Assembly (NCBI RefSeq): GCF_000316195.1
Contig: NZ_JH994111.1
Span: 62,001 to 126,000 of the forward strand
Length of the DNA: 64,000 bases
Direction of reading: 5' to 3'
Source of the DNA: Brachyspira hampsonii 30446
Lineage (GTDB): Bacteria > Spirochaetota > Brachyspiria > Brachyspirales > Brachyspiraceae
Part shown: positions 31,627 to 59,974 of the stretch, piece after piece
Layout of the letters: each line of letters opens with the position of its first letter
Position numbering within the stretch: position 1 is the first letter of the stretch
Program-made: the position numbers and the translations under genes
Notes under the pieces: generated by a model
Databases searched by the model: none
The model's input: only the letters and a program-made list of their open reading frames with translations
What the model was told of the DNA's origin: nothing

Positions 31627-31886
31627 TATCATTTTAGCTTTAATGCTTACTATATTTGCAGCTCTGACAATATATCTTACATAGATAAAAATTATAAATT
31701 TAATAAAAACTATACAAACAAATTTTAGAATAATCAAATATAAAGAATGATGTATGTATTTACATTTCTTTTTTTATAGTATGTAATATTACTGTCTTTT
31801 CTGTAAACAATATTTTTTGTTATAAATTTTATTTTTCACATTAACAAATATTTTATTTAGATTGCTTTGAAGTGTGGGAGGTTATT

Positions 31887-34166
31887 ATGTCAGAAAAACA
31901 ATTTAAGCCAAAAACTAAAGAAGAATTAAAAAAATTAGTAGAAGATGAAAAAATTAATCTTGGAAACATTGATACAAGTTTAATAACCGATATGAGCGAA
32001 TTATTTAGAAATAGTGAAAGAGAAGATTTCTCAGGTATAGAGACTTGGGACGTATCTAATGTTGAAAATATGAGCAGTATGTTTAAAGGATGCAAAGAAT
32101 TTAATCAGCCTCTAAATAGCTGGAATACCAATAAAGTTAAAGATATGTCAAGAATGTTTGAGAGCTGTTCTAACTTTAATCAGCCTTTAAATAATTGGGA
32201 CACTTCTAATGTTGGCAGTATGAACAATATGTTTCAAGAATGCAAATCTTTTAATCAAGACATTAGTAATTGGAATGTTTCAAAAGTAACAAATATGAAT
32301 TCTATGTTTAATGGATGTACAAGATTTAATCAAAATATAAGTAATTGGAATATAAAGAGCATAAAATATATGAGCTTTATGTTTGCCAATGCTTCATCTT
32401 TTAATCAGGATTTAAATAATTGGGATATAAGCAAGGTAAAAAGAATTAGTTTTATACTTAATCGTGCTAATAGTTTTAAAATAATTCCTTATAAATGGAA
32501 TTTTGATAATATAAAAGAAGATATTGAGTATATATTACCAGAAGAAATGCTTGATGAAATATATTCTAAAAAAGAACCTATTAATTTATTATGCTATTTA
32601 TTTTATGACAAATATTATGAAGATGAAAATTTACAAAAAGTAGATGTTAAATTGTGGCATAAGACTTTAAAAAATTCAATTAATAAAAAAATTATTTCTT
32701 TTGTTTCAAGATTAGAAAAAGATTTTGAAAATGAACTTAAAGATGAAAAAGATGCAGTTGATAATAATAATGCACATTTTCAAAATATTGAAGAGGCAGA
32801 AGAATATGTTAATAATAATTATGATAAGTCATTTGATAAAAGCATAAAATTTATAGATGATAAATATACTATCTTTACTAAAGACAGAAAAACAAAAATA
32901 AGTTTAAAGATGATTAGATTTATTTACGGAAGTTATTTAAAAGTCAAAGATAATGTTGTAAGATTAGAAATTATTGATGATATTATTAATTTGCTTGATA
33001 TAGAAAGTTTTATAAATGCATCTTATGAAATATTTTTAAGTGGCAGAAGTAAATTAGCTTCAAGAATTATTTGCGGTATATATGGAGATGGTAAAATAGT
33101 AGAAGATTATGTAAAAAGTTTAAAAAAAGAATTTTATCCGCGTTCATACTATGTTTATATTTTAGCTTTAAATAAAAATAAATATGCATTAAAATTACTT
33201 TGCGATACATCTTTAAAATCAAAAATAGAAAGCATAAAAAATGCAGCCGAATTAGCACTTGAAACTATATCCAATAGAATGAAACTTGAAAGATATGAAT
33301 TAGATGATTTACTAGTTCCTGATTTTAATCTTGATAAGAATGGCGAGAGAATAGTATATGCTGAAGATAAAGAATATAAACTTTTTATTGATGATAATAT
33401 GGAGCTTCATATTATGCATAATAATAAAGAATTAAAAACAGCACCTAAAACTTTTTCTAAAGAGTTAAAATCAGAAATAACTTTTATTAAAAAAGAGATA
33501 AAAAATATTGTAAAAAGCCAAAGAGATAAAATGATATATCTTTTAATGAATGGAAGAAAATATTCTTATAATTTTTGGAAATCTGTTTATATAGATAATT
33601 ATTTTTTTAATGGGTATGCTGTTAAATTGATTTGGAACTTATATGATGAAAATAATTTATTTTTAACAACATTCAGATATTTAACTGATGGAAGTTTTAC
33701 CGATTATAATGATAATGAAGTAAAAATCAATGAAAATAATTCTATTAGTTTAGCATACATTAAAGAAATGGATAATGATATTATAGAGAAATGGAAAAAA
33801 CAATTATCAGATTATGAGATTGTTCAGCCTATTAATCAATTAAGAGTTATTGATGATTTAGAAAAAGAATTTTATTCATATAATGGTGAATATAAATTAT
33901 CTAAGTTAAAAAATTTTGTTAATAAATATCCTTTTAATGAATATTATGAAGATTATTACACAATAGATGGATATAAATTTGAAGAGAAAGTAAGCGGTTT
34001 AGCATTAGACATATCAACAAATGGTATTAGCAGAGATAATGCTGACTTTGGAGATATGATAGAAATAGTATTAAAAATATTAAATATATCAGAAAATAAT
34101 AAAGATTTAGTTGATAGATTTATGTTTGGTTGTATTTTAATGCTTGAATATTTAAGAACTATGTAA
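31887..34166 (+). CDS. DUF285 repeat protein fused to DUF4132
   Basis: 759 residues, no signal peptide. Start set at 31887 because GGGAGG lies 6 bases upstream; the in-frame GTG at 31872 would include it. The N-terminal 200 residues carry about five DUF285/BspA-like repeats of the form F-x-x-CxxFNQ-x-x-x-x-W-(N/D)-(T/V)-S-x-V-x-x-M-x-x-M, a leucine-rich-repeat-like unit common on surface proteins. The centre is helical. The C-terminal part matches DUF4132 (the E. coli MolR-type family): LVPDFNLDKNGER, a lysine-rich helix, and a final W-x5-L-x-DYEIVQPINQL. The combination of surface-type repeats with a cytoplasmic-type domain is unusual. Two decayed relatives of the repeat part follow. Confidence 0.78.
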   Translation: MSEKQFKPKTKEELKKLVEDEKINLGNIDTSLITDMSELFRNSEREDFSGIETWDVSNVENMSSMFKGCKEFNQPLNSWNTNKVKDMSRMFESCSNFNQPLNNWDTSNVGSMNNMFQECKSFNQDISNWNVSKVTNMNSMFNGCTRFNQNISNWNIKSIKYMSFMFANASSFNQDLNNWDISKVKRISFILNRANSFKIIPYKWNFDNIKEDIEYILPEEMLDEIYSKKEPINLLCYLFYDKYYEDENLQKVDVKLWHKTLKNSINKKIISFVSRLEKDFENELKDEKDAVDNNNAHFQNIEEAEEYVNNNYDKSFDKSIKFIDDKYTIFTKDRKTKISLKMIRFIYGSYLKVKDNVVRLEIIDDIINLLDIESFINASYEIFLSGRSKLASRIICGIYGDGKIVEDYVKSLKKEFYPRSYYVYILALNKNKYALKLLCDTSLKSKIESIKNAAELALETISNRMKLERYELDDLLVPDFNLDKNGERIVYAEDKEYKLFIDDNMELHIMHNNKELKTAPKTFSKELKSEITFIKKEIKNIVKSQRDKMIYLLMNGRKYSYNFWKSVYIDNYFFNGYAVKLIWNLYDENNLFLTTFRYLTDGSFTDYNDNEVKINENNSISLAYIKEMDNDIIEKWKKQLSDYEIVQPINQLRVIDDLEKEFYSYNGEYKLSKLKNFVNKYPFNEYYEDYYTIDGYKFEEKVSGLALDISTNGISRDNADFGDMIEIVLKILNISENNKDLVDRFMFGCILMLEYLRTM

Positions 34167-49982: not shown

Positions 49983-51083
49983 TTAGTTATTTAAAAAATT
50001 TTTTATATATTTAGTCTGTTCCGTATTCTTAAGTAAAAAAGCATCATGTCCGTAATTAGATTCTATTTCATGAAATATCGTATCTATACTAGAATGATGG
50101 TATGCAGAAACTATCTCTGCTGACTGTGTGCTTGGATAAAGCCAATCCGATATAAAAGATATAACAAGAACTTTTTCTAAACTAATATTTTTTTTATGTT
50201 TTATTTTTTTTATTTCATCTTTAACATCAAAGAAATCCATAGCTTTAGTAAGATATAAAAAACTATTTGCATCAAATCTTGATGTAAATTTTTCTCCGTT
50301 ATAATGAAGATAATTTTCTACTTCAAAAGAAGGAGTAAAATATTTAACAGCTTTTTTTCTCTTTCTTCCGAATTTTTTTCTCATATACTCTTCACTCATA
50401 TATGTAATATGTCCGAGCATTCTAGCTAAAGCAAGTCCTCTGTCAGGAGTAGACATACCATAATATTTTCCGCCGTACCATTCAGTATCTTCTGTTATTG
50501 CCTGTCTTGCTATTTCATTTAAAGCTATCTGCATAGGAGAATGACTCATAGAGCTCGCTATTACTATTGCTTTTTCCATCATTTGAGGATAAGAAGCCGT
50601 CCATTGTAATACCTGCATTCCTCCCATAGAGCCGCCTGCAACACAATAAAGTTTATTTATTCCTAAACTATCAACTAATATCTTTTGTACTTTTACTATA
50701 TCTTTAATCGTGAAAGTAGGGAAATCTGTACCATAATATGAATTACTATTCGGCTTTTTGGAAGAAGGTCCTGTTGTTCCGCTGCAGCCGCCTAAAACAT
50801 TAGAACATATTACAAAATATTTATCCGTATCTATTGCTTTTTTCTTACCTACAAAATTATCCCACCAAGAGAGAACATCGGCATCTCCTGTAAAAGCATG
50901 GCATACTAAAATGGCATTATCTTTATTAACATTTAAATGTCCGTTTAATGTATATGCTATAGTTAATTCATTTATTGAAGCTCCATTTTCAAATTTGAAA
51001 GCCTTATCATAATTAAAATATTTAATTTCATTGTTTTCCTGTTCATTATTTTTATCTTCTTTTTTGTTTTTTATATTCTTCAT
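49983..51083 (-). CDS. metX: Homoserine O-acetyltransferase (MetX)
   Basis: Acylates homoserine to O-acetylhomoserine, the committed step toward methionine by direct sulfhydrylation; family members may use acetyl- or succinyl-CoA. 366 residues, alpha/beta-hydrolase fold. The family motif GGCSGTTGPSS, the nucleophile elbow AGGSMGGMQVLQW and the C-terminal His in NYGHDAFLL are all present; the Asp is in ISDWLYP. It follows metY in the same direction with a 61-base gap that contains an intercistronic hairpin. RBS GAGGG. Control of the operon is probably by the attenuator upstream of metY. Confidence 0.93.
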   Translation of the reverse strand: MKNIKNKKEDKNNEQENNEIKYFNYDKAFKFENGASINELTIAYTLNGHLNVNKDNAILVCHAFTGDADVLSWWDNFVGKKKAIDTDKYFVICSNVLGGCSGTTGPSSKKPNSNSYYGTDFPTFTIKDIVKVQKILVDSLGINKLYCVAGGSMGGMQVLQWTASYPQMMEKAIVIASSMSHSPMQIALNEIARQAITEDTEWYGGKYYGMSTPDRGLALARMLGHITYMSEEYMRKKFGRKRKKAVKYFTPSFEVENYLHYNGEKFTSRFDANSFLYLTKAMDFFDVKDEIKKIKHKKNISLEKVLVISFISDWLYPSTQSAEIVSAYHHSSIDTIFHEIESNYGHDAFLLKNTEQTKYIKNFLNN

Positions 51084-51100
51084 AAAATAACCCTCTTATC

Positions 51101-51134
51101 AAAACAGGAGTAAATATTTATACCCCTGTTTTTT
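51101..51134 (-). promoter_or_regulatory. Intercistronic hairpin between metY and metX
   Basis: AAAACAGGAGTA / TACCCCTGTTTT (one mismatch) around AATATTTA. The minus-strand T run after it is short, so it may be a weak terminator or RNA-processing site between the two cistrons. Confidence 0.45.
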
Positions 51135-51144
51135 ATATTGTAAA

Positions 51145-52440
51145 TTATTTATTTGCTATAGTTAAAGCCTCATCTAAATAATAAAGTATATCATCAATAT
51201 GTTCTATACCTATTGAAAGCCTGATAAAGTTTTTGCTTATTCCACCTTTTTTCAATTCTTCTTCAGATAATTGAGAATGTGTAGTAGAAGCAGGATGGGC
51301 AACTAAACTCTTAACATCTCCAACATTTACCAAATGGGAGAATAATTTGATATTATCTATAAATTTAACTGCAGCTTCGTATCCGCCTTTTATGCCAAAT
51401 ACAACCATTCCTCCGAATTTATCTTTTAAATATTTACTTGCCGTATTATATGAAGGATCATTTTTAAGTCCAGGATATCTTACCCATTCAACTCTATCAT
51501 CTTTTTCTAAAAACTCAGCAACTTTTAAAGCATTAGAACAATGTCTGTCCATTCTTACTGCTAGAGACTCGGTTCCCTGAATAAATACCCAAGAGTTATC
51601 AGGTGAAAGACAAGCACCTAAATTTCTAAGCGGTACAGTTCTTACTCTCAGAGTAAATGCTATATTTTTAAGCTCATCTGGTAAATCATAAGCCCATCTT
51701 AATCCATGATAATTTGAATCTGGCTGTGAAAATAGAGGGAATTTATCGCTTTGCCAATTAAAATTACCGCTGTCAGTGATTATTCCTCCGATAGCACTTC
51801 CATGTCCGCCTATCCATTTTGTAAGAGAGTTGATTACAATATCTGCACCATGTTTGATAGTCTGTAAAAGATAAGGTGTTGTAAAAGTAGCATCTATAAC
51901 TAGAGGTATTCCCGCATCATGTGCTATTTTAGCAACTGCTTCAATATCTGTAAAATCTAATGAAGGGTTTGAAATTGTTTCTATAAATATTAATTTGGTT
52001 TTATCAGTGATAGCCTTAGCAAAATTAGAAGGATCTTTAGCATCTACAAATTTTGTATTGATTCCAAGTTTAGGAAGTATTGCAGCAAATTGAGAATATG
52101 TACCGCCATATACATTAAATGATGAAACTATTTCATCTCCTGCTTCACATATAGTTATTATAGTATAGAATATTGCATTTGTTCCAGATGATACCGCAAT
52201 AGATGCCTTACCGCCTTCCATAGCAGTAATTCTTTTTTCTAATACATCTGCTGTCGGATCGCCAAGTCTTGTATAAATATACCCAAGTTCTTTTAAATCA
52301 AATAAATCAGCAGCATGTTTTGAATCTCTAAACAAATACGAAGTAGTTTTATATACCGGAACTCCTCTGCTCCCGAATATATCATTAGAATCCTGTCCTG
52401 CATGTGCTGCTAATGTTTCAAATTTTAATTCTCTTGACAT
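51145..52440 (-). CDS. metY: O-acetylhomoserine sulfhydrylase (MetY)
   Basis: PLP enzyme of the Cys/Met metabolism family that makes homocysteine from O-acetylhomoserine and sulfide. 431 residues from MSRELKFETLAAHAGQ at 52440, where AAGGAG lies 9 bases upstream. A longer in-frame extension to 52542 exists but crosses the attenuator terminator and is not used. The PLP Lys lies in SLTKWIGGHG, and the long mid-protein insertion (LRWAYDLPDELKN...RNLGACLSPDNSWVFIQGTESL) marks the MetY rather than MetB/MetC class. First gene of the metY-metX operon. Confidence 0.94.
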   Translation of the reverse strand: MSRELKFETLAAHAGQDSNDIFGSRGVPVYKTTSYLFRDSKHAADLFDLKELGYIYTRLGDPTADVLEKRITAMEGGKASIAVSSGTNAIFYTIITICEAGDEIVSSFNVYGGTYSQFAAILPKLGINTKFVDAKDPSNFAKAITDKTKLIFIETISNPSLDFTDIEAVAKIAHDAGIPLVIDATFTTPYLLQTIKHGADIVINSLTKWIGGHGSAIGGIITDSGNFNWQSDKFPLFSQPDSNYHGLRWAYDLPDELKNIAFTLRVRTVPLRNLGACLSPDNSWVFIQGTESLAVRMDRHCSNALKVAEFLEKDDRVEWVRYPGLKNDPSYNTASKYLKDKFGGMVVFGIKGGYEAAVKFIDNIKLFSHLVNVGDVKSLVAHPASTTHSQLSEEELKKGGISKNFIRLSIGIEHIDDILYYLDEALTIANK

Positions 52441-52465
52441 CTTTATAATACTCCTTAATGATAAA

Positions 52466-52500
52466 ATAAAAAAAAGCCGCCAAATAAATTTGACGGCTTT
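52466..52500 (-). terminator. Attenuator terminator in the metY leader
   Basis: Minus strand AAAGCCGTCAAAT / ATTTGGCGGCTTT followed by TTTTTTATTTTAT. It lies between the leader peptide and metY, so transcription must pass it to reach metY. Confidence 0.85.
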
Positions 52501-52541
52501 AAAGTACAAAATAAAAAATAAATTATTATTGACAGCCATCA
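52491..52541 (-). promoter_or_regulatory. Antiterminator pairing in the metY leader
   Basis: UGAUGGCU (52541-52534), inside the last codons of the leader peptide, is complementary to AGCCGUCA (52498-52491), the 5' arm of the terminator: 8 bp with one G-U. The two structures are mutually exclusive. Confidence 0.7.
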
Positions 52542-52603
52542 TTATTAAACATACACATTTGCATGAGGCAAAACATTTTGTTCATAACGATGATTGTTTT
52601 CAT
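52526..52603 (-). CDS. Met/Cys-rich leader peptide upstream of metY
   Basis: A 25-codon ORF (ATG at 52603, TAA at 52528-52526) in the metY leader. Six codons are Met and three are Cys; residues 7-18 read MNKMFCLMQMCM, and the end reads NNDGCQ. Upstream TTTAGGAAAT supplies a plausible RBS about 9 bases before ATG. Such enrichment in the end product of the operon it precedes is typical of attenuation leader peptides. Stalling at Met codons 10-16 would leave the antiterminator 5' strand free; reaching the stop codon would cover it and let the terminator form. Function is inferred from layout. Confidence 0.78.
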   Translation of the reverse strand: MKTIIVMNKMFCLMQMCMFNNDGCQ

Positions 52604-52645
52604 TTACAATATTTCCTAAAATATTTATTTAATAATTAATTAAAG

Positions 52646-52674
52646 ATTATACAACAATATAAAATTATTGTCAA
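52646..52674 (-). promoter_or_regulatory. Consensus promoter for the metY leader
   Basis: Minus strand TTGACA (52674-52669), 17-nt spacer, TATAAT (52651-52646): perfect consensus. Transcription would start near 52639, giving a leader of about 200 bases. Confidence 0.88.
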
Positions 52675-52819
52675 CAGTAATTAGTTTTATTTTTTTAAGT
52701 ATTACAATAATTTTAAATAAAGCTTTAATCATAATTAATATAACTAAATATTCGACTTAAAACAATAAGTCTAATATTAGGTAATAAAATTTAAATCAAA
52801 ATCTTATTTAAATTAACAT

Positions 52820-53032
52820 TTCATTTAACGCACGCTAAATCGATTTATATAATAAATTTAAATTGAATTAATAACTAAATTATATTTCTTTAACTGCTAT
52901 GCGTGCGTGTTAATACATTATAAATTTAAATAAAACTAGGGCGGGTGCTTTAATTTATAATTTGACTAACAAAATAATTGAAGTTATATTTTAAAAAGAA
53001 ATTAGTAAATATAAAGGGTGGGGTATGTAATT
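52820..53032. repeat. Family A palindromic repeat, right part (A10)
   Basis: Inner AACGCACGCTAAATCG, then GCTATGCGTGCGTG, ACTAGGGCGGGTGC and AAAGGGTGGGGTATGTAATTAA. The left outer and middle boxes are missing. It lies between the metY promoter and the end of the DUF262 gene. Confidence 0.8.
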
Positions 53033-53045
53033 AAAACTGTTTTAT

Positions 53046-53090
53046 AATAAAAAAAGGAGCTTAGCTTTTAATTTAAGTTAAACTCCTTTA
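53046..53090 (-). terminator. Terminator after the DUF262 gene
   Basis: AAAGGAGCTTAGCTT / AAGTTAAACTCCTTT stem (wobble pairs) followed on the minus strand by TTTTTTTATTAT. Confidence 0.8.
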
Positions 53091-53114
53091 TTTTAACAAC
53101 AAATTAATTATTAT

Positions 53115-55604
53115 TTATTTTTTAGAAAAAGCGTCTATAACATGTATCAATGTATTTTTATATTCATCTAACATTTCACCATAATTATCCAAATCTTTCA
53201 TATAATACCAATCATCATTAGGATCTTTATTATATCCATCGAAATTAAGTCCTTTATCTTTTATTAATTCAAAAACTTGTTCAGATATTTCTGCATTTTT
53301 AAAAGGTTTTTGTTTTCTTAATCCGCACTGAATTATATAGCCAGCAGTAGTAAAACCCACTAAAACTTTTTCATTTTCTATTTCTATTTCTTTAGCTAAA
53401 GTAACCCAACTATAACAATATGAAATTTCCTTATTTGGATATCTTAATATTCTTTCTCCTTTAATATTAGGATTATTAGTTCCATCATAATAGTACAATT
53501 TAAAGTCTTTAAAGTTTGCATTGTCTTTCAATAATTGATAAAACATTGTATGCACTTTAGTTGTCAATGGTATATCCCAATGAGTACTATTTCTATACTG
53601 ATAATATAAATAATAACCGCTATATAGATGTTTTTTTACTTCACCTGAATATGAATATTCTTTATTGTATAAAGTTACATCATTGTCATTTGCATCTTTA
53701 GCATTTTTTATTAACAAATATTTCCAATGGCTATCATCTTTATAATTATCTATTATATTCTTGCATTTATCCGATATAGTTTTATTTACTTTATCATTAA
53801 ATATAGTATTTATAAACTCTTTTAATTTATTTGGATATTTTATCAATAATTTTTTATTATCATTATCTTTATCTTTATTATTTCTAAATATAGATATTGT
53901 TGTAGAACGATAAGGTCTAAAATTTTCTATTTCATTTTTATCAATAAATACTAATATAGCCCTATGTATTAAATAATTTCCATTTTCATTATTAAAGCCA
54001 TTTTTAGTAAAAATATAATTTACTACATTAACTATATTTTCATTACTTATATTGTCTAATAAGAAATCAATATTACCTTGTAAAAATACATTATTCTCAC
54101 AGGCGTAAATTATTTTTCTAATCTTTTCATCACAGCTTTTTAATATATCTAATTTATTTTGTTCTGATTCAACTATTATTTTCAATATCTCTTGATGATT
54201 ATCATTATAAGGTTTTAATAATATTTTTCCATTTTCTATAAATGATTTTATAAAACTAATTTGGAATTTTAGTTCATCATCATTGCCAATATGTTCATAG
54301 TAAATAAATATAAAATTCCTTATAAATCTCAATATATCTTTATAATCTTTGATTTTTTTAATTATTGAATCTATATTTTCATTTTCTTTATAATTTTCTT
54401 CTTTATATATTTTATTTAAAATAATAAAAAAACTAAACAGTAATATTTTATATTTCAAATCATAATTATTTATTTTAAGCAAAATAATATAGTCATCTTT
54501 TTTATCAAAAATGTTTATATTTTCTTCAAAAGTAGATATTTTATTATTATAAATATTTCCATCATATATACAAAATATTTCATTAAATAATTCAATGGTT
54601 TTACTAGTGGTTAATTTATAAAATATATCCAATATATTAACTATAAATTTTATATTACATTCTAACATACAGTTTTTACTATCATCAATATATTTTGTGT
54701 CTGTTTTTATTACAAATAAATTAAAGAAATCTTTTAGATATGATCCTATTTTTTCATTTTTTTTCTTTATATATTCACATTGTTCTGCATATAACATTCT
54801 AAATACAAAATCAAAAAAGTTTTTAAAAATACTGTCTATATCATTTTTCTCACTATCTTTTGAAAATTCCCAGAAAAAATCAGACCAAGTTGTATCTATT
54901 TTTTCTTTAAATTCTGCTAAAAGATTAACATCTATTTTTCCATCTAAAAAACTTTCAAGCTTTGATTTAAATATTTCAAAATCTGTTAATTGCTTTCCCC
55001 TTGAGTTCATTTTTATATATAAATCATCAGGATCCCCTTCTATATATTCACAATAAAATTGTATGCCATTTAATTTGCTGCTTTTAATATTTTTGTTATT
55101 TTTAACTCTTTTATGAATATCATCTATTACTTTAAGCATTCCTTTAACAGTTGTATCTTTTTCCCAAAAGTTTAAAAACTTAATATTATCTTTTAATTTG
55201 TCTGATAACTTTTCATTTGTTTCTAAATTAATTTCATTTCTTTTTATACTTAATAAAAATGATATAAAGTCCTTTGATGAATTTCTAGTTTCATAAGTAA
55301 ACTTTTTTAATCGTTCTCTTTCAAAGTTGAAATACCAATAAAATAAAAATAAAGTTGTCAATCTTTGCTGCCCATCTAATAAATAAAAAATGCCGTTATC
55401 TTTTACTCCATATATATAGTCTAATATTAATTCTCCTTTATCATTTGATAAAAAATCAACAATAACATCTAAAAAATCATCTCTTATTTTTTCTGCTTCA
55501 TTAGTATTTCTTCCCTGAGCATAACCTCTTTGTATAATAGGCACAACGACATTATTTTCGTATTTATTTAATAATGATATAAAATTTTCTTTATTATCAC
55601 TCAT
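53115..55604 (-). CDS. DUF262-domain protein (GmrS-like), probable defence gene
   Basis: 829 residues from MSDNKENF at 55604, where AAGGAG is 7 bases upstream; an earlier in-frame start overlaps the preceding gene. The N-terminal DUF262 (ParB/Srx-like NTPase) has VVPIIQRGYAQGR, the nucleotide motif LDGQQRLTTLFLFYWY and KMNSRGKQLTDFEIFKSK. The middle is helical; the C-terminal part (about 640-829) contains YCYSWVTLAKEIEIENE and was not recognised. It lies 10 bases after a DUF262-DUF1524 gene, so they form an operon. DUF262 proteins of the GmrSD/BrxU/SspE type act in antiphage defence with modified DNA as trigger; the trigger here is unknown. Confidence 0.75.
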   Translation of the reverse strand: MSDNKENFISLLNKYENNVVVPIIQRGYAQGRNTNEAEKIRDDFLDVIVDFLSNDKGELILDYIYGVKDNGIFYLLDGQQRLTTLFLFYWYFNFERERLKKFTYETRNSSKDFISFLLSIKRNEINLETNEKLSDKLKDNIKFLNFWEKDTTVKGMLKVIDDIHKRVKNNKNIKSSKLNGIQFYCEYIEGDPDDLYIKMNSRGKQLTDFEIFKSKLESFLDGKIDVNLLAEFKEKIDTTWSDFFWEFSKDSEKNDIDSIFKNFFDFVFRMLYAEQCEYIKKKNEKIGSYLKDFFNLFVIKTDTKYIDDSKNCMLECNIKFIVNILDIFYKLTTSKTIELFNEIFCIYDGNIYNNKISTFEENINIFDKKDDYIILLKINNYDLKYKILLFSFFIILNKIYKEENYKENENIDSIIKKIKDYKDILRFIRNFIFIYYEHIGNDDELKFQISFIKSFIENGKILLKPYNDNHQEILKIIVESEQNKLDILKSCDEKIRKIIYACENNVFLQGNIDFLLDNISNENIVNVVNYIFTKNGFNNENGNYLIHRAILVFIDKNEIENFRPYRSTTISIFRNNKDKDNDNKKLLIKYPNKLKEFINTIFNDKVNKTISDKCKNIIDNYKDDSHWKYLLIKNAKDANDNDVTLYNKEYSYSGEVKKHLYSGYYLYYQYRNSTHWDIPLTTKVHTMFYQLLKDNANFKDFKLYYYDGTNNPNIKGERILRYPNKEISYCYSWVTLAKEIEIENEKVLVGFTTAGYIIQCGLRKQKPFKNAEISEQVFELIKDKGLNFDGYNKDPNDDWYYMKDLDNYGEMLDEYKNTLIHVIDAFSKK

Positions 55605-55614
55605 AATATTCTCC

Positions 55615-57438
55615 TTATTTATTTTTTTCATACAGATAATCACTTATTGAATTGATGATATTATCCAAATAATCTTTTTTGTCATTTTTTGTCCATAATA
55701 GTATATCCCTAGGATCTTTTGTATAATATTTTAAAAATAGATTCTTTGTAGATATAGGAATATATTTTTTATTATTTTTAATTAAATCTTTAATTTTTTT
55801 TAGTTTCATAGGAAAAATAGAGTTACTCAATGTAGTATTATTATTTACATCTATTAATGCCAAATTAGAAATATTATTTTCATCATATAAATAATTATTT
55901 TCTTCTGATGTTATAAAGTCCCCACTATTTTCTAATGATTTTTCATAAATAAAAAATAATGCATCTAATATATAATTAAATTTATCTTCTATTTTGAAAT
56001 TATTAAAAGCTTCATCTAAATTTTTATATTCATCTTTTATTAATTCTTTATTTTGAAGTATATATTGTTTATTTTCTTCTATAAATTTTTCTTTTTCTTT
56101 ATCAGATAATTTTTGTGATTTTCTTGCATGTATATGCTCCAAAGATGGCTTTATTTTTTTGTATTCGTCAAATGGAAATCTTATATTTTCTTTCAAGCTT
56201 TCTATTATATTGAATAATAATAATATTTTTATTATTTGAATATTATTATTATCATATTTCAATTCTAATATATTTTTTTCTAACTGTTCATGATTATTAG
56301 CATTAATACTTTTTTTTATATCTTCTTTTATTTTATTATTAAAGTTTTCTTTAGTGTTTAGTTATTTATCTTTCACAACATATGATAATATAGTTTTTAA
56401 CTCTTTTGAACGAGAGGCTATTAAATAACCGATATCATTATATAAATTATCATCTTCATACCATTCTTTTAAAATATAAAAATATTTTGAAAGCTCTTTC
56501 CAATTTTCAGTTAAATTTTTTTTATCTTTAAACTTTTTATAAAAATGTTCAAATATTTCATATTTTGTTTTTACAGTATTATTATTTTCTTTTTCTATAC
56601 CATATATTAACTCAAATAAAAAATCCATTCTAATGTCAGCATTATCATTATTAGAAATAAAATACCAGAATTTATCGTTTTCTAATTCTATTTCCATATT
56701 TTCCCATTGATTGGCAATATTTATTTGTTTTAATTCTTCTACTTTTTTGCTGCTGTCATTATCATCTTTAAAATTTGATTTATGTAAGAATATAGCCTTT
56801 ATCAATTCACTATCAGTAAGTGGTATTTTTCCTGCATTAAGCCTTTGAAAAACTTCATTTTCGTCATCGCTTCCTATATTATACCATATTATATTTACAT
56901 TATTTAATAATTTTTCCTTAAAGTCTTCTTTCTCTATTTGATTATTTTCATTTTTATTAAACCAAATATCTATATATTTATAAGCTTCAAAAATATAATA
57001 ATAGTCTATGTTTTGTTTATAATCATTTTCTGGTGTATTTATATCAATATCATCTAAAAATTCTTTATTTTGTTTTGTTTCGTATTTTAAAGTAAATAGT
57101 TTATTATTTTCATTATTATTTAAATATTTTAATATCAAATAAATTGTGGTTAATCTCTGCTGCCCATCTACTAAATTATATTGTTCTTTATTATCATCTT
57201 TTTTTACATATTTTACAGCTATAGGGTTAAGACAATACTTCTCATCTCCTTTTTTATTTTCTATAAATTCTTTTATATCTTCCAATAAAGCCTGAACTTC
57301 GCCATTTTCACCTCTCCATCTATACCCCCTTTGATAGCTAGGTATAACGAAATTATATTCTATATTATTATATACTATTAACTCGTTTATGCTTCGCATT
57401 TCTACAGATTTATTATTTTGCTTAGTTGATTCTGCCAT
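55615..57438 (-). pseudogene. DUF262-DUF1524 (GmrSD-like) gene interrupted by one stop codon
   Basis: N-terminal half (57438 to 56362): DUF262 with FVIPSYQRGYRWRG, NLVDGQQRLTTIYLILKYL and FQRLNAGKIPLTDSELIKA. It ends at TAA (56364-56362) after VVKDK. The same frame continues with LNTKENFNNKIK and leads into the C-terminal half, which has the DUF1524 HNH-like nuclease segment SLEHIHARKSQKLS and NISNLALIDVNNNTTLSNSIF. Replacing the single stop gives about 606 codons, the usual fused GmrSD length. The C-terminal half could also be translated alone from a TTG at 56262, but no RBS supports it. It starts at MAESTKQNN with AAGGA upstream. Probably inactive or read through. Confidence 0.8.
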
Positions 57439-57549
57439 ATAATAGTCCTTAAAAATAAATATACACTGTATAGTATAACATATTTTAATGACAAAAACTG
57501 TCTTAAAAAAATCAAAAAATAAAAATTTAAAAAATATTTTATTATCATA

Positions 57550-57593
57550 TTGACAAAAATATAATTTAGTATTATAGTACCAATATACTAAAT
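57550..57593 (+). promoter_or_regulatory. Promoter and inverted-repeat operator of the rrf2-hcp operon
   Basis: TTGACA (57550-57555), 17-nt spacer, TATAGT (57573-57578). Arms ATTTAGTAT (57564-57572) and ATACTAAAT (57585-57593) are perfect inverted repeats surrounding the -10 box, a likely binding site for the Rrf2 product. Confidence 0.7.
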
Positions 57594-57614
57594 TAGTAAT
57601 AACAGGAATAAAAA

Positions 57615-58064
57615 ATGATTCCAATATCAGAAGCCTCAGCTATAGCTCTGCACTCTGCAGTATATATATCTATTAAAGAGTTTGCATCTCTTAAAGATAT
57701 AGCAGAAAGATTTGATGTTTCGCCTAATCATTTATCGAAAGTTCTTCAAGCACTTGTAAAGGTGGGGTATCTTACTTCATCAAAAGGACCTGCAGGCGGA
57801 TTTAAAATTGCTGAGGGTAAAGAAAATGCTTCTTTTTTGGATATATACGAAACTATAGAGGGTAAAAATTGGCAGAGAAGCTGTTTGTTTCATTCTAAAT
57901 GCGGTAAATATTGTTCAAGCTGCATAATGGGTGATTTAGTTAATGATATAAACAGAAAGTTCAAAAACTATATGGAAAGCCATACAATCAAAGATCATTA
58001 TTTATTAGATGATGATTTCAAGATAAATAAAACAGATGATAAAAAATCAAAACAAAAAAAATAA
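57615..58064 (+). CDS. Rrf2-family transcription regulator (NsrR-like)
   Basis: 149-residue winged-helix regulator. The helix-turn-helix is in SLKDIAERFDVSPNHLSKVLQALVKVGYLTSSKGPAGGF, a strongly conserved Rrf2 pattern. C90, C96, C100 and C103 could hold a [2Fe-2S] or [4Fe-4S] cluster, as in IscR or NsrR. It lies 12 bases upstream of hcp in the same operon, so it probably senses nitrosative or oxidative stress and controls hcp and itself through the operator at 57564-57593. The C-terminal tail is basic. RBS ACAGGA. Confidence 0.88.
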   Translation: MIPISEASAIALHSAVYISIKEFASLKDIAERFDVSPNHLSKVLQALVKVGYLTSSKGPAGGFKIAEGKENASFLDIYETIEGKNWQRSCLFHSKCGKYCSSCIMGDLVNDINRKFKNYMESHTIKDHYLLDDDFKINKTDDKKSKQKK

Positions 58065-58076
58065 ATGGAGGATTAA

Positions 58077-59726
58077 ATGGACAATAAAATGTTTTGTTAT
58101 CAATGTCAGGAAACAATGAATAATACAGGCTGTGTTACTTCTGGAGTATGCGGTAAAAAACCAGATTTAGCCTATTTAGAAGACTTACTAGTTCATGTAA
58201 CTAAAGGACTTTCTAATATAACAACTGCTATAAGAAAAGAAGGCGGAAAAGTAGATAAAAAAGTTAATCATGATGTAACATTCAATTTATTTACTACTAT
58301 AACAAATGCGAACTTTGATAAAGAAGTTTTTTATAAGAGAATAGAATACACAGCAAAACTTTGCAATGAATTAGCAAATCAGGTAAAAGACAAATCACTT
58401 ATACTTGAAGAATCTCTATGGACACCTAAAAGCAAAGAGGATATGGACGCTAAATCAAAAACAGTAGGCGTATTGGAAGAGAAGAACGAAGATATAAGAA
58501 GCCTTAAAGAAACTGTTATATACGGAGTTAAGGGATTAAGTGCTTATATAAGACATGCTAATATGCTTGATTATGAGAATGAAGAGGTTGATGCTTTTAT
58601 ACAGAGAGCTTTAAATGATACATTAAGAGATGATATAAATGCCGATGAACTTTTAGCTTTGGTACTTGAAACAGGTAAAAACGGTGTTGATGGAATGGCA
58701 CTTCTTGATAAGGCTAACACTTCTACTTACGGTAACCCAGAAATTACAAAAGTTAATATAGGTGTAGGAAAAAATCCTGGAATATTAGTATCTGGTCATG
58801 ATTTAAAAGATATAGAAATATTGTTAAAACAAACAGAAGGCACAGGAGTAGATGTATATACTCATTCTGAAATGCTTCCTGCTCACTACTACCCAGAATT
58901 AAAAAAATATAAACATTTTGTAGGAAATTACGGCGGAGCTTGGTGGGATCAAAGAAAAGATTTTGAAAGTTTCAACGGACCTATACTAATGACTACAAAC
59001 TGTATAGTAACTCCTTTACCAAGTTATAAAGACAGAGTATATACAACAGGGGCAGCAGGTTTTGAGGGCTTAAAACATATAGAAAGCCATACAGATAAAG
59101 AAAGCGATAAAGATTTTACTCCTATAATAGAGCATGCAAAAAAATGTCAGCCTCCTAAAGAAATAGAAAGCGGTTTTATAGTTGGAGGATTTGCCCATAA
59201 TCAGGTATTATCACTTAAAGATAAAATTGCTGAAGCTGTAAAATCAGGTGCTATAAAAAGATTTATTGTAATGGGCGGATGCGACGGAAGACATAAAGAG
59301 AGAGAATACTATACTGAATTTGCTCAAAAACTTCCTAAAGATACTGTAATATTAACTGCAGGCTGTGCTAAATACAGATACAATAAATTAGATTTAGGCG
59401 ATATTAACGGCATACCTAGAGTATTGGATGCAGGACAATGTAATGACTCTTATTCATTAGCTGTTATTGCTTTGGGACTTAAAGATTTATTCGGTTTAGA
59501 TGATATTAATGACTTGCCTATAGTTTATAATATAGCTTGGTATGAACAGAAAGCTGTTATAGTTTTACTTTCTCTTCTATATTTAGGCGTAAAAAATATT
59601 CATCTTGGACCTACGGTTCCTGGATTCTTATCACCTAATGTAGTTAATATATTAGTTTCAAAATTCGGAATCTCTGGAATAGGAAATGTTGATGAAGATT
59701 TGAAAAAATTCAACTTGATAGCATAA
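58077..59726 (+). CDS. hcp: Hybrid cluster protein / hydroxylamine reductase (Hcp)
   Basis: 549 residues, full length. The N-terminal cluster motif C7-x2-C10-x8-C19-x5-C25 ([20 protein letters not shown]) holds a 4Fe-4S cluster. Ligands of the hybrid cluster appear in [11 protein letters not shown] (His), TTNCIVTPL (Cys), [10 protein letters not shown] (Cys) and DAGQCNDSY (Cys), and [11 protein letters not shown] is the usual C-terminal signature. The enzyme reduces hydroxylamine in vitro and acts as an NO reductase in some bacteria. Preceded by its Rrf2 regulator; RBS GGAGG. No hcr reductase gene is adjacent. Confidence 0.95.
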
Positions 59727-59741
59727 TACTCCAAATATGAA

Positions 59742-59777
59742 AAAGAGCTTAACTTTTATAAGTTAGGCTCTTTTTTT
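59742..59777 (+). terminator. Terminator after hcp
   Basis: AAAGAGCTTAACTT / AAGTTAGGCTCTTT stem (one G-U) with TTTTTATA. The remaining gap to 60192 holds only AT-rich DNA and the promoter at 59975. Confidence 0.85.
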
Positions 59778-59974
59778 ATACATAGCTAAATAATCATACT
59801 TTTAAAGTATTAATTAATTTACTTTAAAACATATATGATTTTTATTTATTTTTCTTTATATTAAATCAATAAATAAATATAAAAAACAAAGTTATCAATC
59901 TATAAAATAATCAAAAAATAATTAAAATACAAATTCTTACAAACTTAAAAATTTTTAAAATAAACATATTATTG

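What the first reader, a model, noticed from the sequence alone, without database searches (positions are those of the whole stretch)
53115..57438. Tandem DUF262 genes forming a GmrSD-like defence operon, one with a nonsense codon
A DUF262-DUF1524 gene and a second, larger DUF262 gene are 10 bases apart. DUF262 and DUF1524 together make type IV restriction enzymes (GmrSD), but a pair of two different DUF262 proteins with a long unrecognised C-terminal domain in the second is less familiar. The first gene is stopped once by TAA at 56362 in an otherwise open frame.
Basis: partly seen in the sequence, partly recalled or inferred. Interest (0 to 1): 0.6.

Follow-up and report, generated by a model that had tools for sequence, protein, structure and literature searches.

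The report
Broken two-gene GrwAB-type phage-defence operon
Two neighbouring genes form a recently described kind of bacterial defence system that recognises and cuts phage DNA carrying chemical modifications; here a stop codon has cut off the DNA-cutting part of the first protein, so this copy is probably switched off although intact copies exist in relatives.

Summary
On the minus strand, gene A (57438..55615) encodes DUF262 followed, after one in-frame TAA (56364-56362), by a DUF1524-type HNH nuclease. Gene B (55604..53115, 829 aa) starts 10 bases later and encodes DUF262 plus a long region with no Pfam domain. The pair is a conserved two-gene unit: 77 of 84 loci outside the genus have an intact A directly upstream of B, most of the rest are contig-edge or broken copies, and one spirochaete encodes A and B as one 1311-residue protein. 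The QR, DGQQR, FxxxN and E-H-N-N residues are invariant in 46 A proteins, and all nuclease residues lie beyond the stop. This is the anatomy of GrwAB, a modification-dependent restriction system described in Vibrio cholerae in 2025, so it is a new member of a known kind. I could not obtain GrwB for direct comparison. The stop looks recent: the frame beyond it is open, keeps the catalytic residues and shows no relaxed selection. Two additions: the operon is a cassette at a variable site (empty in one related species), and B proteins in the genus are mosaics of modules with different histories, which suggests exchangeable specificity modules.

The parts
55615..57438 (-). gene A (GrwA-like): DUF262 + helical linker + DUF1524-type HNH nuclease, interrupted by one TAA
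   Evidence: profile match 3-574/577 E=9.7e-164 with one TAA inside; AlphaFold model mean pLDDT 85, Foldseek best DndI 9jfl E=2e-8 and SspE
56788..57372 (-). DUF262 (GmrSD_N) domain of A, residues 23-217, with QR(36-37), DGQQR(91-95), F197/N201
   Evidence: PF03235 E=6.5e-32; motif residues invariant in 46 of 46
56362..56364 (-). in-frame TAA, codon 359 of A
   Evidence: intact relatives, e.g. L056, have a sense codon here
55618..56178 (-). DUF1524-type HNH nuclease region of A, residues 421-607, beyond the stop: E434, H435, N525, N534, N539, K545
   Evidence: all six residues invariant in 46 of 46; 36 of 46 homologues match PF07510; strands at 431-435 and 526-530 in the model
53115..55604 (-). 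gene B (GrwB-like), 829 aa
   Evidence: B-type proteins in 55-member alignment A4
54957..55577 (-). DUF262 domain of B, residues 10-216, with QR(25-26), DGQQR(77-81), Y196/N200
   Evidence: PF03235 E=4.5e-23; residues invariant in 55 of 55 (Y196 in 54)
53685..54947 (-). helical middle of B, residues 220-640; part resembles the SspE C-terminal helical region
   Evidence: model m44d23107b6a2; 7dri Z 7.2 over 206 residues, rmsd 5.9, weak for a helical match
53970..54134 (-). conserved hinge of B, residues 491-545 (E503, G510), 84-96% identical in five loci whose flanking modules differ
53118..53687 (-). C-terminal region of B, residues 640-829, alpha/beta, low-confidence model, no family
53053..53089 (-). 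terminator-like hairpin followed by T run after B; about 40-70 bases here are shared by loci with different alleles
   Evidence: fold z -3.8; matches in L061, L071, L072, L174; the consensus scan did not list it
53120..57529 (.). segment absent in a related species (108 bp in its place) between the metY-like gene and rrf2-hcp
   Evidence: L167 of genome G004

Best explanation
This is a GrwAB-type two-protein, modification-dependent (type IV) restriction system. A and B are made from one operon and act together. Their DUF262 domains bind and hydrolyse NTP and sense modified DNA, and the HNH domain of A cuts it. B, with DUF262 and a long helical and C-terminal extension, is probably the partner that helps recognise the target; its modules are exchanged between species. 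In this genome a recent nonsense codon removes the whole nuclease domain of A, so this copy should not restrict DNA. Shown here: anatomy, invariant motifs, near-obligate linkage, one natural A-B fusion, cassette location, mosaic B proteins. Taken from GrwAB work: both proteins needed, NTPase and nuclease residues needed, modified phage DNA as target. Inferred: complex formation here, B as the specificity partner, loss of function.
For: Linkage: in 84 loci outside the genus with a separate B gene, 77 have an intact A immediately upstream on the same strand, gap -209 to +14, most often -4. Four more have broken or partial A, three start at or near contig ends, and none has the reverse order. L157 is one 1311-aa reading frame with both DGQQR motifs and the HNH, A then B. 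Motifs: QR, DGQQR, F..N, E, H, N, N, N, K invariant in 46 A; QR, DGQQR, N200, E481, E503 invariant in 55 B. The window's H435-N525-N534 spacing (90, 9) equals that of GrwA H431-N521-N530 quoted in PMC12137116. Folds: A resembles DndI and SspE; B resembles SspE and DndI through DUF262 and the helices. Stop recent: dN/dS versus the closest intact copy is 0.32 before and 0.26 after the stop; lineage changes 26N/17S before and 13N/14S after.
Against: The GrwB sequence could not be reached, so homology of B to GrwB itself is by architecture only. The window's own nuclease part gives no Pfam hit. No activity, complex or target was tested. The C-terminal quarter of B is modelled with low confidence. 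Some relatives' copies are also broken, so the system is not always kept.
Confidence: 0.83

Rival explanations
1. The TAA is a real gene boundary: A is naturally split into a DUF262 protein and a separate HNH protein, like GmrS and GmrD.
For: GmrSD exists as two proteins in some strains (PMC4619093). Selection after the stop is not relaxed.
Against: Intact relatives, near and far, are single reading frames. The first in-frame start codon after the stop is a TTG 33 codons on (56262) without a GGAG-like site before it, whereas A and B both have one (by eye).
Confidence: 0.08
2. The TAA is a sequencing or assembly error and the gene is intact.
For: Frame and catalytic residues are otherwise perfect; single genome, no reads available.
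Against: A single substitution-type difference rather than the usual homopolymer indel; broken copies are common in the genus.
Confidence: 0.12
3. The operon defends by another route (for instance abortive infection or RNA targeting) or has a non-defence role.
For: B is large and mostly uncharacterised; about a quarter of it has no reliable fold.
Against: GrwAB, of the same layout, needs NTPase and HNH residues, and phage escape maps to the DNA-modification enzyme DpdA (PMC12137116). The HNH residues are invariant here.
Confidence: 0.06

Closest known systems
GrwAB (V. cholerae VSP-II of the WASA lineage; PMC12137116)
   Same: Two genes in the same order: DUF262-DUF1524 first, DUF262 with unknown C-terminal domains second; same motifs; same H-N-N spacing as GrwA.
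   Different: Host is a spirochaete (inferred from my knowledge of its gene content, not named by a tool); A is interrupted; sequence of GrwB not compared; no activity tested here.
TgvAB (V. cholerae VPI-2; PMC11411939)
   Same: Two DUF262 proteins, one with DUF1524, both needed.
   Different: Nuclease is in the second gene; the partner's extension is described as distinct from that of GrwB. A pair of that layout is elsewhere in this genome (L054).
GmrSD / BrxU / SspE / DndI
   Same: DUF262 plus HNH in A; A's model matches DndI and SspE.
   Different: These act as single proteins (or DUF262 and DUF1524 as two proteins), without a second DUF262 partner of type B; SspE and DndI work with phosphorothioate marks.

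Membership tests
GrwAB | Two-gene operon, DUF262-DUF1524 gene first and DUF262-plus-unknown gene second | tested here: met
   architecture of GrwAB
[quoted passage not shown]
   in B the F is Y (54 of 55 members)
GrwAB | HNH catalytic residues H, N, N in the DUF1524 domain of A | tested here: met
   invariant in 46 of 46; in this copy encoded beyond the stop
GrwAB | Sequence homology of B to GrwB beyond DUF262 | not testable with these tools
   no collection gave the V. cholerae gene; architecture only
GrwAB | Both proteins required; protection against phages with 7-deazaguanine or sugar-modified cytosine DNA | not testable with these tools
   experiment needed
TgvAB | DUF262-only gene first, DUF262-DUF1524 gene second | tested here: not met
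   order is reversed here; met by the separate pair L054
Single-protein GmrSD (Eco94GmrSD, BrxU, SspE) | Complete system in one DUF262-DUF1524 protein | tested here: not met
   A is accompanied by B in essentially all assessable loci, so it is filed under the two-protein kind; whether A acts alone was not tested

The most novel reading that the evidence does not exclude
B (GrwB-like) is a modular target-recognition subunit. Within this genus its DUF262, helical and C-terminal modules are exchanged by recombination around a conserved hinge, much as HsdS specificity domains are, giving new phage or modification specificities to one nuclease partner.
Probability: 0.35. Interest if true: 0.6.

Novelty: new member of a known kind. 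Interest (0 to 1): 0.33.

Why it matters
It shows that the two-protein GmrSD-like layout found in V. cholerae is spread over many phyla, with strict gene order and at least one natural fusion that argues for a working complex. The mosaic B proteins and the cassette site give a ready set of natural chimaeras for asking which part of the partner chooses the DNA modification, an open question for type IV enzymes (PMC12409362).

Tried and rejected
Pfam, NCBIfam and PADLOC give no name for B beyond DUF262 and none for the nuclease part of A alone. PDB sequence search with B found nothing reliable (a weak eL22 ribosomal-protein match, E 0.03, was set aside as chance). Phage records hold no close relative of B. 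A search for GrwAB itself through 369 genomes of the class of an Acinetobacter locus found three genomes with B-type genes (one of them the starting genome); in the one whose pair I fetched (L185) the residue numbers do not match GrwA. Structure search of the B C-terminus is uninformative because the model is poor there. The terminator scan listed no terminator although folding supports a hairpin.

Full report
What is there. On the minus strand of the window, gene A runs from ATG 57438 to TAA 55615-55617 in one frame that is open except for a TAA at 56362-56364, codon 359 of 607. Gene B starts 10 bases later at 55604 and ends at 53115, 829 residues. In the A frame there is 1 stop; the other five frames of the same stretch have 24 to 112. 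Both proteins begin with DUF262 (PF03235, E=6.5e-32 and 4.5e-23).

The part of A after the stop. On its own it has no Pfam match. Its identity as a DUF1524-type HNH nuclease rests on relatives: 36 of 46 homologues match PF07510, and the E-H ... N ... N residues are invariant in all 46 aligned sequences (E434, H435, N525, N534, N539, K545 in read-through numbering). The AlphaFold model (mean pLDDT 85) matches DndI (9jfl, E=2e-8) and SspE best, with low full-length TM-scores, which may reflect a different arrangement of domains. A profile of the family, built from 45 outside homologues and the window's read-through, matches the window's own genome over positions 3-574 of 577, across the TAA, at E=9.7e-164. 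So the stop removes the entire nuclease domain and leaves DUF262 and part of the linker.

The pair is a unit. A profile scan of bacterial genomes with B returned 80 loci from Bacteroidota, Bacillota, Actinomycetota, Pseudomonadota, Campylobacterota, Spirochaetota and others, and plasmids gave five more that I opened. Among 84 loci with a separate B gene, 77 have an intact A directly upstream on the same strand (overlap or gap from -209 to +14, most often -4). Two have A broken into pieces (L108, L144), two have a partial A (L121, L140), and three begin at or near a contig end (L080, L117, L153); none shows B before A. In L157, an uncultured Spirochaetales genome, A and B are one 1311-residue frame with two DGQQR motifs, which argues for a complex. 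In the window's genus, 13 of 26 genomes have B-type genes, mostly as intact pairs, with several decayed copies.

What it most likely is. The layout is that of GrwAB, found in 2025 on a V. cholerae island: GrwA is DUF262-DUF1524, GrwB is DUF262 followed by unknown domains, both are required, NTPase and HNH residues are required, and escape mutants of a 7-deazaguanine phage map to the modifying enzyme DpdA (PMC12137116). The window's H435-N525-N534 spacing equals that of GrwA H431-N521-N530; the first distance varies from 68 to 113 in the family and two other members share 90, so this is consistent rather than decisive. TgvAB (PMC11411939) is a related two-protein system with the nuclease in the second gene; a pair of that layout (DUF262-DUF7834, 477 aa, then DUF262-DUF1524, 670 aa) is present elsewhere in the same genome at C3:468.8-472.2 kb (L054). 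I did not obtain the GrwB sequence, so membership is by architecture and motifs.

The stop. Compared with the closest intact copy (genome G016, 77% identical), dN/dS is 0.32 before the stop, 0.26 after it, and 0.43 in B. Changes on the window's lineage are 26 non-synonymous to 17 synonymous before and 13 to 14 after. Numbers are small, and most divergence is probably older than the stop, but nothing suggests long decay. The first in-frame start codon after the stop is a TTG 33 codons on, with no ribosome-site-like sequence before it (read by eye), so a functional split is less likely. A sequencing error cannot be excluded without reads.

Location. In genome G004 the flanks are present without the operon: window 51004-53119 and 57530-59857 match L167 at 94% identity with 108 bp between them in place of 4.4 kb. 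The site lies between a metX/metY-like pair and rrf2-hcp. Other species carry A-B pairs from other branches beside the same hcp gene (L061, L071, L072; A alone at a contig end in L073) or the same metY gene (L169, genome G008), and genomes G004, G009 and G025 have no pair at the matching flank. Short flanking stretches at the start of A and just after B are shared between sites with different alleles, so the operon behaves as an exchangeable cassette.

Mosaic B proteins. Identity to the window's B changes abruptly along the protein. Against G011: 80% in residues 1-235, 36% in 250-490, 26% in 545-690. Against G003: 45%, 36% and 91%. The stretch 491-545, with invariant E503 and the nearly invariant G510, is 84-96% identical in five loci. 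The tree of the first module rejects that of the second, and the reverse, by about 259 and 314 log-likelihood units (AU p below 1e-60); the third module's data did not reject the other trees, so its exchange rests on identities only. This suggests module exchange as in HsdS specificity subunits, and makes B a candidate for target choice. That is an inference; I did not test it, and I did not find it in the papers read.

Fold of the B extension. Residues 220-510 are helical and resemble the helical C-terminal region of SspE (Z 7.2 over 206 residues at 5.9 A, weak for helices). Residues 640-829 are modelled poorly and no fold can be claimed. No Pfam family beyond DUF262 is shared by the 55 B proteins; three single-member hits look like chance.

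Verdict. The interest lies less in the stop codon than in the strict pairing, the natural fusion and the mosaic B proteins.

Noticed in passing
window 52900-53050: One copy of a dispersed intergenic repeat of about 135-150 bp; one search lists 47 matches in the own genome (the self-match and some partial ones included), mostly 71-79% identical. No reliable Rfam match in this stretch. Function unknown.
   Followed up: partly
L054:4766-8229 (own genome C3:468.8-472.2 kb): An intact TgvAB-like pair (DUF262-DUF7834, then DUF262-DUF1524 with H579) in the same genome as the broken GrwAB-like pair.
   Followed up: partly
L055 (own genome C3:224 kb): A decayed DUF262 gene with several stops.
   Followed up: no
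L157:4342-8277: Natural fusion of A and B in one 1311-residue protein.
   Followed up: partly
window 31872-34166: 764-aa protein combining DUF285 repeats with DUF4132, an unusual-looking combination.
   Followed up: no
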